DNA of 38,126 bases from Ruminococcus sp. (lineage in GTDB: Bacteria > Bacillota > Clostridia > Oscillospirales > Ruminococcaceae): NCBI GenBank assembly GCA_017461395.1, contig JAFTYF010000029.1, positions 1-38,126 of the forward strand, read 5' to 3'. Both the position numbers and the translations under genes were made by a program. The notes under the pieces are model-generated. The model saw only the letters and a program-made list of their open reading frames with translations, was not told the origin of the DNA and ran no database searches. Within the stretch, counting starts at the first letter, position 1, and each line of letters starts with the position of its first letter. Of the stretch, positions 20,526-37,615 are shown piece after piece.

Positions 20526-20984
20526 ATGGCACTCAGAAAAATTTTGACTGACAAGGACGAAATTCTCCACAAGGTCTGCAAGCCTGTAGAGAAATTCGAT
20601 GAAAAGCTTGCACAGCTTCTTGACGATATGCACGAAACTCTTGACAAGGCTCAGGGCGTAGGTCTTGCGGCTCCGCAGGTAGGAATCTGCCGCAGAATCT
20701 TCATCATGCACCTTGAAGATGGAATCATAGAGGCTATAAATCCCGAAGTTACAAACTGCGAAGGCAAACAGCGTATCGAGGAAGGATGCCTCTCCTGTCC
20801 TAATGTATGGGGATACGTTACACGTCCGAAAAAATGCCGCCTCAAGGCTCAGGACCGCAACGGAAACTGGTTCGAGCGTGATTTCACAGAGCTTGGCGCA
20901 CAGTGCACCTGTCATGAAAACGATCATCTTGACGGTCATGTTTTTACTGAGATAGTAGAAGAATTTTTCGTTCCTGAGGAGTGA
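20526..20984 (+). CDS. def: Peptide deformylase
   Basis: Metalloenzyme that removes the formyl group from nascent proteins. The protein has 152 aa with all three family motifs: [10 protein letters not shown] (residues 44-53), EGCLS with metal ligand Cys88, and HENDH with ligands His130 and His134 and catalytic Glu131. AAAGGA precedes the ATG at 20526. It is followed 8 nt later by fmt, its functional counterpart. Def appears intact although fmt is interrupted. Confidence 0.96.
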
Positions 20985-20992
20985 TAATATAT

Positions 20993-21931
20993 ATGAAGAC
21001 AATTTTCATGGGAACGCCTGACTTCGCTGTACCCTGCCTGAAAGCTCTTGCAGAAAGCACTCACGAAGTAATGGCAGTATTCACACAGCCCGACAAACCA
21101 AAGGGGCGCGGCTACAAGATGATCCCTACGCCCGTTAAGACTGCTGCGGCTGAATATGACATTCCCGTTTATCAGCCTCTTTCTCTCAGAAAGGGCGATG
21201 ATGCGGAAGAATCTATGAAGCTTCTGCGTGAGCTTGCTCCAGATATTATAATCGTTGCGGCTTACGGTCAGATTCTCCCCAAAGAAGTCCTTGAACTCCC
21301 GAAATACGGCTGCGTGAATATCCATGCATCGCTTTTGCCGAAATACAGAGGTGCAGCTCCTATCAACTGAGTGATCCTCAACGGCGAAAAGGAAACCGGA
21401 ATCACCTCCATGCAGATGGGCGAGGGACTTGATACCGGCGATATGCTCATAAAAAGATCAACTGAGATCGGCGAAAACGAGACTTATCAGGAGCTATACA
21501 GCCGCCTGTCAGATATGGGCGCTGAGGTGCTTATGGATACCATTTCCGCTATTGAAAACGGCACTATTGCACCGGAAAAACAGGATGATTCCCTCACCTG
21601 CTACTCCCCTATGATAACAAAGGAAATGAGTGCCATCGACTTTAATAAATCCGCCGCTGAGGTACACAATACTATCAGAGGCGTTACCGGATTCGCTATG
21701 CTCGACGGAAAAAGACTCAAAATCTTCGCTTCAGCGCTCACCGGAAAAACATCCGCAGACGCAGCAAACGGCGAAATTGTTGATACCGCTTCCTTCGATG
21801 TAAAATGCGGAGACGGACAAATCATACGCTTCCTCGAAGTTCAGCCTGAAGGCAAAAAACGCATGAAGGTATCTGATTTTCTTCGTGGAAATAAACTTTC
21901 AACTGGTAAAATTTTTAATCAGGAGGTATAA
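20993..21931 (+). pseudogene. fmt: Methionyl-tRNA formyltransferase with in-frame TGA
   Basis: The enzyme formylates Met-tRNAfMet using 10-formyl-THF. The full reading frame is 313 codons, the normal family length, and starts [14 protein letters not shown]. Codon 126 (21368-21370) is TGA, in the segment GAAPIN-stop-VILNGEKETG, where clostridial homologues often have Trp; one G-to-A change in TGG explains it. The frame continues intact to 21931. Asn109 and His111 lie before the stop, while the Asp of GLDTGD (residue 147) lies after it, so neither part should be active alone. A GTG follows the TGA directly but lacks a ribosome binding site. Nearby genes use TGA as a normal stop. It could be a recent nonsense mutation, an assembly error or readthrough. 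Confidence 0.85.
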
Positions 21932-36280: not shown

Positions 36281-36499
36281 TTATAAAGTTTCCTCATCAT
36301 CATTGAATTCAAGTATATCTCCCGGCTGGCAGTCGAGAGCCTTACAGATAGCGTTAAGCGTTGAAAATCTGATAGCGCTGACCTTTCCGGTCTTTAGTTT
36401 TGACAGATTGACATTACTCACGCCGACACGCTCACTCAGCTCATTGAGGCTGATTTTTCTATCCGCCATTACACGGTCAAGTCTTAAAATTATCGACAT
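36281..36499 (-). CDS. XRE/YozG-type HTH regulator
   Basis: A 72-aa helix-turn-helix protein, little more than the DNA-binding domain: MADRKISLNELSERVGVSNVNLSKLKTG, then an IRFSTLNAICKALDCQPGDIL helix pair. It resembles YozG-type regulators that are paired with DUF2975 membrane proteins in Firmicutes, as here. The ATG at 36499 is preceded by GAGGTGACT, and the DUF2975 stop lies 7 nt upstream. It probably controls its own operon, though no operator was found. Confidence 0.88.
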   Translation of the reverse strand: MSIILRLDRVMADRKISLNELSERVGVSNVNLSKLKTGKVSAIRFSTLNAICKALDCQPGDILEFNDDEETL

Positions 36500-36506
36500 A
36501 GTCACC

Positions 36507-37166
36507 TCACAATGTTTCGTCGGATTCCTGCTGAAGCTGTGCACCGTACTTGAATATCGAAATAAACAACAGAACAATAAATACGACAAATACCGCAGCA
36601 ATTCCGCTGATACCTCCTAACAGAAGTACTATGCCTGCCCATACGGCAAGAGCTATTCCGAATCCCTTCATTCTCCTGAGTACTTCTTCCTCAAACGGTG
36701 AGTTGCAGTTTTCGAGAGCGATTGCAAGCTTCTTTGCATAGGAAAGAGCAATCAGGACACATACAAGAAATAGTTCAGCTGCAAAAGCACTTATAATTGC
36801 CATAAGCTTTATCTGTTTTACTGAAAGTTCTTTTATCTCTCCTTCAAAACTCACAACACGGTTATCATCTGCGTCTCTTTCTTCGTTTACAAGCCATTTT
36901 ATGTTCATTCCCCAGAATTTTGCATCAAGATCAGTTTCTTCAAAACGAAGATCCACTATTTCTTCAAGAAATTTATTATCCTCAACGATTATCTGTGCAT
37001 AACCCGATCCTGTCGCCTTCAGAGTATCATTCGGAATCATCATAACCATAGCACCGGCGATTAGCACGATGACAAGTCCGATAACAACAATGACACGCAT
37101 AATATTAATAAATATACGGCTTATTTTTCCAAGCTTGTTGATTTTTGCTACGTTTTCGTTTTTCAT
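36507..37166 (-). CDS. DUF2975-type membrane protein
   Basis: A 219-aa protein with four hydrophobic helices (about residues 16-45, 118-147, 166-188 and 190-212). An unusually large soluble loop of about 70 residues lies between helices 1 and 2, predicted outside. DUF2975 proteins typically carry four helices and sit beside a small XRE regulator, and that arrangement is seen here. The start at 37166 is preceded by AAAGGAG and about 28 residues shorter than the longest frame. Function unknown; sensing or membrane homeostasis is possible. Confidence 0.8.
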   Translation of the reverse strand: MKNENVAKINKLGKISRIFINIMRVIVVIGLVIVLIAGAMVMMIPNDTLKATGSGYAQIIVEDNKFLEEIVDLRFEETDLDAKFWGMNIKWLVNEERDADDNRVVSFEGEIKELSVKQIKLMAIISAFAAELFLVCVLIALSYAKKLAIALENCNSPFEEEVLRRMKGFGIALAVWAGIVLLLGGISGIAAVFVVFIVLLFISIFKYGAQLQQESDETL

Positions 37167-37218
37167 AATAAAATCTCCTTTAAAATCATTTTTGCACCTC
37201 TGTGCTTTCCATGATTGT

Positions 37219-37247
37219 ATTATAGCAGAAGATTTACCGAATGTCAA
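37219..37247 (-). promoter_or_regulatory. Consensus promoter of DUF2975-HTH pair
   Basis: On the minus strand TTGACA (37242-37247), a 17-nt spacer and TATAAT (37219-37224). The -35 hexamer contains the TGA stop codon of the upstream Nudix-like gene, so this promoter overlaps that gene's end. Confidence 0.9.
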
Positions 37248-37615
37248 CTCTCGTAAAGGTCTACATTGTATTCGTCCTTCTCTGAAATTACATAGTCCCA
37301 GAGCTTTGAAACCTCTACATTCGTAACCTCGCCCTTTACATTACCTGTATTGTAATGCTCGAACTTTCTCTTGAGCACGAACACATGCTCACCCTCAACT
37401 CTGCCCGGTAAAAGCACTAAATCCGACTTCTGTACACGCTCCGAAATCTGTCTTGTTGCAATTCGAAATGCTGCGTCAACCGGCTCCTCACCCTCAACAA
37501 TTCTTCCCTTGCACATTGCACCGAACTTTCCGCCTGATAACGGCTTTCTCAAATATACCTTAAAACCTTCCGAGCCCCATGATACTACCCATAAATGAAC
37601 TAATTCTCCTACCAT
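37244..37615 (-). CDS. Nudix-fold-like protein without an intact Nudix box
   Basis: A 123-aa protein. The segment around residues 36-58 (CKGRIVEGEEPVDAAFRIA) has the spacing and look of a Nudix box, but the required REUXEEXGU catalytic residues are not present: it reads ATRQISERV. The surroundings (LVHLWVVSW, VYLRKP) fit Nudix strands. It may be a non-catalytic Nudix-like binding protein, or a different fold. AGGAAAG precedes the ATG. It starts 24 nt after the amylase gene and is likely co-transcribed with it. Confidence 0.6.
   Translation of the reverse strand: MVGELVHLWVVSWGSEGFKVYLRKPLSGGKFGAMCKGRIVEGEEPVDAAFRIATRQISERVQKSDLVLLPGRVEGEHVFVLKRKFEHYNTGNVKGEVTNVEVSKLWDYVISEKDEYNVDLYES

What the first reader, a model, noticed from the sequence alone, without database searches (positions are those of the whole stretch)
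21368..21370. fmt carries an in-frame TGA that separates its catalytic residues
The frame is otherwise complete at 313 codons, and the two halves join perfectly across the TGA. The stop replaces a residue after GAAPIN that is often Trp in clostridial Fmt. Asn109 and His111 lie before it and the Asp of GLDTGD after it. If real, initiator-tRNA formylation would depend on readthrough or be lost while def remains intact. TGA is used as a normal stop in nearby genes, so the code is not changed.
Basis: partly seen in the sequence, partly recalled or inferred. Interest (0 to 1): 0.75.

Follow-up and report, generated by a model that had tools for sequence, protein, structure and literature searches.

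The report
Lone stop codon in draft fmt
One base change puts a stop codon in the middle of an otherwise normal gene for the enzyme that formylates the start tRNA in a draft gut-bacterium genome; it is most likely a sequencing or assembly error or a fresh mutation, not a new decoding system.

Summary
The only fmt found in this draft Ruminococcus-type genome carries an in-frame TGA at 21368-21370 (codon 126), between N109/H111 and D147. Both nearest relatives (93.7% and 92.4% identical in fmt) have TGG there, so it is one G-to-A change on this branch; of 94 other fmt loci read, 79 have TGG and none a stop. Nothing points to programmed use: tRNA-Trp is ordinary and identical to that of a relative with TGG, prfB is intact, and no suppressor tRNA or SelB over cut-off was found. 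In 248 genes compared, codons at relatives' Trp sites are TGG 539 times and TGA twice, one being fmt and the other lying before a real start. The same assembly has lone stops in other conserved genes at non-Trp codons: a trhP-like gene (Arg to TGA) and spoIVA (Glu to TAG). Best reading: a base error in a draft consensus (0.5), or else a very recent nonsense mutation (0.34). Functional readthrough is not excluded (0.11) but has no positive support. Error is favoured, not shown: the sequence around fmt is otherwise clean, the excess of lone stops over the relatives is not significant, and no reads were available.

The parts
20526..20984 (+). def, peptide deformylase, intact, just upstream of fmt
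   Evidence: Pep_deformylase 151.4 bits; no internal stop
20993..21367 (+). first part of fmt, residues 1-125, with N109 and H111
   Evidence: Formyl_trans_N 93.1 bits, profile 1-122; residue numbers
21368..21370 (+). in-frame TGA at codon 126; TGG in both nearest relatives
21371..21931 (+). second part of fmt, residues 127-312 and TAA, with D147; its first codon is GTG, as in L022
   Evidence: Formyl_trans_N 42 bits (profile 125-180) and Formyl_trans_C 73.7 bits; GTG in L022

Best explanation
The TGA is most likely a wrong base in the consensus of a fragmented draft genome: the organism has TGG (Trp126) and makes ordinary Fmt. Shown: a single-base difference from both nearest relatives, an otherwise constrained gene, and lone stops of mixed type at mixed residues in other conserved genes of the same assembly. 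Inferred: that this particular base is an error; no reads were available.
For: One substitution from the relatives' TGG, with both halves otherwise alike: window-branch changes nonsynonymous/synonymous are 2/12 before and including the stop and 5/21 after it, near priA 12/57, znpep 7/29, rsmB 11/40, rlmN 5/24; def is 3/3. Draft of 80 contigs. Of 248 conserved genes compared, 4 have a lone internal stop: fmt, a trhP-like gene (AGA in G011, TGA here), spoIVA (GAA in G042, TAG here) and a 133-codon ORF with TAA at codon 116 that I did not assign to a family. None of the 22 other spoIVA matches and none of the 16 other trhP-like matches has an internal stop. fmt has no internal stop in the 58 other genus genomes that gave a match, and 146 of 147 high-quality family genomes keep the gene, so real loss would be rare. 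PMC11017572 (abstract and passages) reports that low coverage or low-quality reads create spurious internal stops in bacterial assemblies.
Against: No reads or coverage were seen. The surroundings are clean: the own-only departures at invariant columns are W126stop and L215I in fmt, V84I in def and none in priA, znpep, rsmB and rlmN, and no other gene of the contig with amino-acid identity above nucleotide identity is interrupted past codon 11 (the right end of the window, past about 34.7 kb for G011, is compared only in part). The trhP-like gene and spoIVA carry further own-only changes that look radical to me (I117N; P379H, L451H), fmt does not; and by count these departures are not unusual (3 each, against relatives' median 3 and 1). 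The excess of lone stops over the reciprocal control is not significant (4 of 248 against 1 of 256, Fisher p 0.21). fmt loss is survivable in some bacteria (PMC3557171, PMC7949028).
Confidence: 0.5

Rival explanations
1. A real, very recent nonsense mutation in the sampled strain. Fmt ends after residue 125 and is inactive or nearly so; translation starts with unformylated Met and def has little left to do. Ordinary near-cognate reading by tRNA-Trp may leave a trace of full-length enzyme.
For: G to A is the commonest kind of change (general knowledge); neighbourhood without signs of error. Staphylococcus aureus is viable without Fmt, with reduced growth, and grows similarly to wild type without oxygen (PMC3557171, passages); formylation is called dispensable in Pseudomonas, Streptococci and Bacillus (PMC7949028, passages).
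Against: No decay in either half, so it would have to be very young. fmt is kept in 146 of 147 high-quality genomes of the family. In mollicutes fmt and def are lost together (PMC4014445, passages), whereas def is intact here.
Confidence: 0.34
2. A real TGA that is tolerated because tRNA-Trp (CCA) or another near-cognate tRNA reads it often enough to make full-length Fmt. The site accepts Trp, Gln, Arg or His in relatives, so the inserted residue would matter little.
For: Preserved reading frame and constraint on both halves; tolerant residue.
Against: tRNA-Trp is identical to that of G011, whose fmt has TGG, and has a five-pair anticodon stem (my reading of the sequence), not the four-pair form whose readthrough was shown in E. 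coli (PMC13092985, abstract and section 20). prfB is intact. The RNA around the site folds no better than shuffles (z 0.62 and -0.62). Lone stops elsewhere in the assembly are at Arg and Glu. No relative shares the TGA.
Confidence: 0.11
3. Split Fmt: ribosomes stop at the TGA and restart at the GTG that follows directly, and the two fragments assemble.
For: TGA is followed at once by GTG in frame.
Against: The GTG is also there in L022 behind TGG, so it did not arise for restart. I see no ribosome-binding site before it (by eye). The cut lies inside the catalytic Formyl_trans_N domain.
Confidence: 0.03
4. TGA means Trp (or selenocysteine) in this genome.
For: TGA stands at a Trp site.
Against: In 248 genes, codons at relatives' Trp sites are TGG 539 times and TGA twice; the second TGA is in a frame extension before the real start of a RadA-like gene (RadA named by eye). 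60 of 179 genes end in TGA. prfB is intact. 50 tRNAs named by ARAGORN, none with anticodon TCA, CTA or TTA. SelB and tRNA-Sec have no match over their cut-offs.
Confidence: 0.02

Closest known systems
Spurious internal-stop pseudogenes of draft bacterial assemblies (PMC11017572)
   Same: A lone internal stop in an otherwise normal gene of a fragmented draft, with stops of different kinds in other conserved genes
   Different: Coverage and reads of this genome were not available, so the artefact is inferred
Natural fmt loss, for example in mollicutes (PMC4014445)
   Same: The enzyme would be missing
   Different: There fmt and def are lost together; here def is intact and the rest of fmt is under normal constraint
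UGA read as Trp by tRNA-Trp(CCA) with a four-pair anticodon stem (PMC13092985)
   Same: In-frame UGA at a Trp site, and tRNA-Trp(CCA) as the only tRNA-Trp seen
   Different: The tRNA-Trp here has five pairs in the anticodon stem, and Trp codons elsewhere are TGG

Membership tests
Methionyl-tRNA formyltransferase, Fmt (TIGR00460) | score over the curated cut-off across the whole frame | tested here: met
   291.8 bits against 201.5, read through one TGA
Methionyl-tRNA formyltransferase, Fmt (TIGR00460) | catalytic Asn, His and Asp in one polypeptide (residue roles recalled) | tested here: not met
   N109 and H111 before the TGA, D147 after it; met only if the stop is an error or is read through
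Spurious pseudogene of a draft assembly | raised number of internal stops against near relatives | tested here: inconclusive
   4 of 248 against 1 of 256, Fisher p 0.21
Spurious pseudogene of a draft assembly | reads disagree with the consensus at the site | not testable with these tools
   no reads held
UGA-to-Trp recoding | many Trp codons read TGA, and TGA not used as terminator | tested here: not met
   539 TGG and 2 TGA, one of the two not in a coding region; 60 of 179 genes end in TGA
UGA-to-Trp recoding | tRNA-Trp with UCA anticodon or a four-pair anticodon stem | tested here: not met
   one tRNA-Trp, CCA, five pairs
Selenoprotein | SelB and tRNA-Sec in the genome | tested here: not met
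   no match over either cut-off; the genome is about 93% complete

The most novel reading that the evidence does not exclude
The TGA is real and fixed in this species and ordinary tRNA-Trp reads it through, so that the supply of Fmt, and with it the degree of initiator-tRNA formylation, is set by termination efficiency (RF2 against tRNA-Trp) in a gut anaerobe that keeps def.
Probability: 0.05. Interest if true: 0.6.

Novelty: already known. Interest (0 to 1): 0.12.

Why it matters
If the TGA were real and fixed, it would tie initiator-tRNA formylation to stop-codon leakage, or be a case of fmt loss with def kept. As it stands it is mainly a caution: a lone stop in a draft consensus, even at a telling residue, is within the background of this assembly (4 of 248 conserved genes compared).

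Tried and rejected
Second fmt copy: none found. The other TIGR00460 match in the genome (C10, 54.9 bits, below cut-off, profile 62-171, open frame 213 codons) looks like purN; that name is my inference.

Internal stops in fmt of relatives: the genus search shows none in the 58 other genomes with a match; two of those matches are partial (G033, G037) and G001 gave only a purN-like match. The family search shows one more row with a TGA (G231), which proved to be the gene's own end; the purN-like TGA of G041 likewise. The match listing was cut, so stops in its lowest-scoring matches were not seen.

Stops first counted and then dropped: (222 genes, 22 with stops or frame changes) included ORFs without family and stops before real starts. 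One search gave 4 of 179 for this genome, one of them (a FolT-family gene) before the real start, and in the reciprocal direction 1 of 70 and 1 of 129, of which the TypA case lies before the real start and the other is a 107-codon ORF with no NCBIfam match. One search required good identity on both sides and gave 4 of 248 against 1 of 256 (again the 107-codon ORF), setting aside 14 and 10 stops near ends or before starts; 8 of each were printed.

The tRNA alignment used wrong coordinates and is worthless; one search replaced it.

Literature searched: fmt deletion, UGA readthrough in Bacillus subtilis, internal stops in metagenome assemblies, and fmt with formyltransferase, premature stop codon and readthrough together, which gave no paper. 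Papers were seen as listings, abstracts, passages or one section, not in whole.

Full report
Observation. The window is contig C13 of a draft genome of 2,083,463 bases in 80 contigs, rated 93.19% complete. fmt runs from ATG 20993 to TAA 21931, with a TGA at codon 126 after GAAPIN. N109 and H111 are before it, D147 of GLDTGD after it. The first part matches Formyl_trans_N 1-122, the second Formyl_trans_N 125-180 and Formyl_trans_C; def upstream is intact. The whole frame scores 291.8 bits to TIGR00460 and is the only match over the cut-off in the genome.

Relatives. The nearest fmt loci are L022 (same stretch as L007, genome G011; titled MAG Ruminococcus sp. RGIG6339, sheep rectum; 93.7% nt) and L023 (same as L006, genome G042; RGIG6295, sheep rectum; 92.4% nt). 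Both, and the 79.8% relative L024, have TGG. Of 101 loci read, 95 hold the motif; apart from this one 79 have TGG, 10 CAG, 2 CGT and one each CGC, CAC and CAT, none a stop (genomes of the genus can appear twice). In the genus search 58 of 59 other genomes gave an fmt match, none with an internal stop. In the family search 186 of 197 genomes, and 146 of 147 high-quality ones, have fmt.

Selection. Polarised with L023 and L024, the window branch carries 2 nonsynonymous changes (one of them the stop) and 12 synonymous in the first part of fmt, and 5 and 21 in the second. The L022 branch has 0/13 and 2/3. Neighbours on the window branch: priA 12/57, def 3/3, znpep 7/29, rsmB 11/40, rlmN 5/24. The gene was under normal constraint until very recently, or still is. 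At the 123 columns invariant in 47 relatives fmt departs only at W126 and L215I.

Decoding. prfB is intact. ARAGORN named 50 tRNAs in the 25 loci scanned, one of them tRNA-Trp (CCA), none with anticodon TCA, CTA or TTA; of 54 Rfam tRNA hits, three weak ones on C77 and one cut by the end of C2 were not named there. The tRNA-Trp has five pairs in the anticodon stem and is identical to that of G011; that of G042 differs by one exchanged pair. SelB and tRNA-Sec have no match over cut-off. In the gene set the codons at relatives' Trp sites include 539 TGG and 2 TGA; one TGA is fmt, the other is before the real start of a RadA-like gene. Terminators in the set are 109 TAA, 60 TGA and 10 TAG of 179. 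TGA is an ordinary stop here. The RNA around the site folds like shuffled sequence.

Background of lone stops. ORFs from 1.36 Mb of G011 and G042 were compared with 757 kb of this genome. Of 248 conserved genes, 4 have a lone internal stop: fmt (TGG to TGA); a TrhP-like U32-family gene (AGA in G011, TGA here at codon 270; contig C8, 1772; best NCBIfam match TrhP, below its cut-off); spoIVA (GAA in G042, TAG here at codon 454; contig C42, 4429); and a 133-codon ORF with TAA at codon 116. In the reciprocal comparison it is 1 of 256, a 107-codon ORF with no NCBIfam match. The difference is not significant (p 0.21). None of the 22 other spoIVA matches and none of the 16 other trhP-like matches has such a stop. 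Own-only departures at invariant columns are P379H, L451H and the stop in spoIVA, and I117N, V363I and the stop in the trhP-like gene. I read some of these as the kind that base errors give, but their number is not unusual against the per-relative control (median 1 and 3). On the window contig no other gene with amino-acid identity above nucleotide identity is interrupted past codon 11.

Reading. A mixture of stop types and replaced residues cannot come from Trp-specific readthrough and fits base errors or scattered fresh nonsense mutations. PMC11017572 (abstract and passages) describes spurious internal stops in low-coverage or low-quality assemblies. If the three family-identified cases were all errors, the rate would be about 2.8 per 10,000 bases. 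Against this, the surroundings of fmt are clean, and fmt loss is survivable in some bacteria (PMC3557171; PMC7949028; passages only), though in mollicutes def goes with it (PMC4014445, passages). I give consensus error 0.5, real recent nonsense 0.34, tolerated readthrough 0.11, restart 0.03, recoding 0.02. Only reads can settle it.

Noticed in passing
L153:1359-2579 (-), own contig C8: A TrhP-like U32-family gene with an in-frame TGA at codon 270 (AGA in G011), within 2.6 kb of a contig end; none of the 16 other matches has an internal stop.
   Followed up: partly
L150:4316-5788 (-), own contig C42: spoIVA with an in-frame TAG at codon 454 (GAA in G042) on a 7.9 kb contig; none of the 22 other matches has an internal stop.
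   Followed up: partly
L221:8926: A 133-codon ORF, 93% identical in G042, with TAC to TAA at codon 116; not assigned to a family.
   Followed up: no
window 36303-37248: This stretch is 98.8% identical to G042, against about 87-94% elsewhere in the window; its ORF 36507-37247 (-) has only Pfam matches below cut-off. Recent exchange is possible.
   Followed up: no
genome G125 (family search): The only one of 147 high-quality family genomes with no fmt match at E 1e-40 (97% complete); a candidate for real fmt absence, not examined.
   Followed up: no
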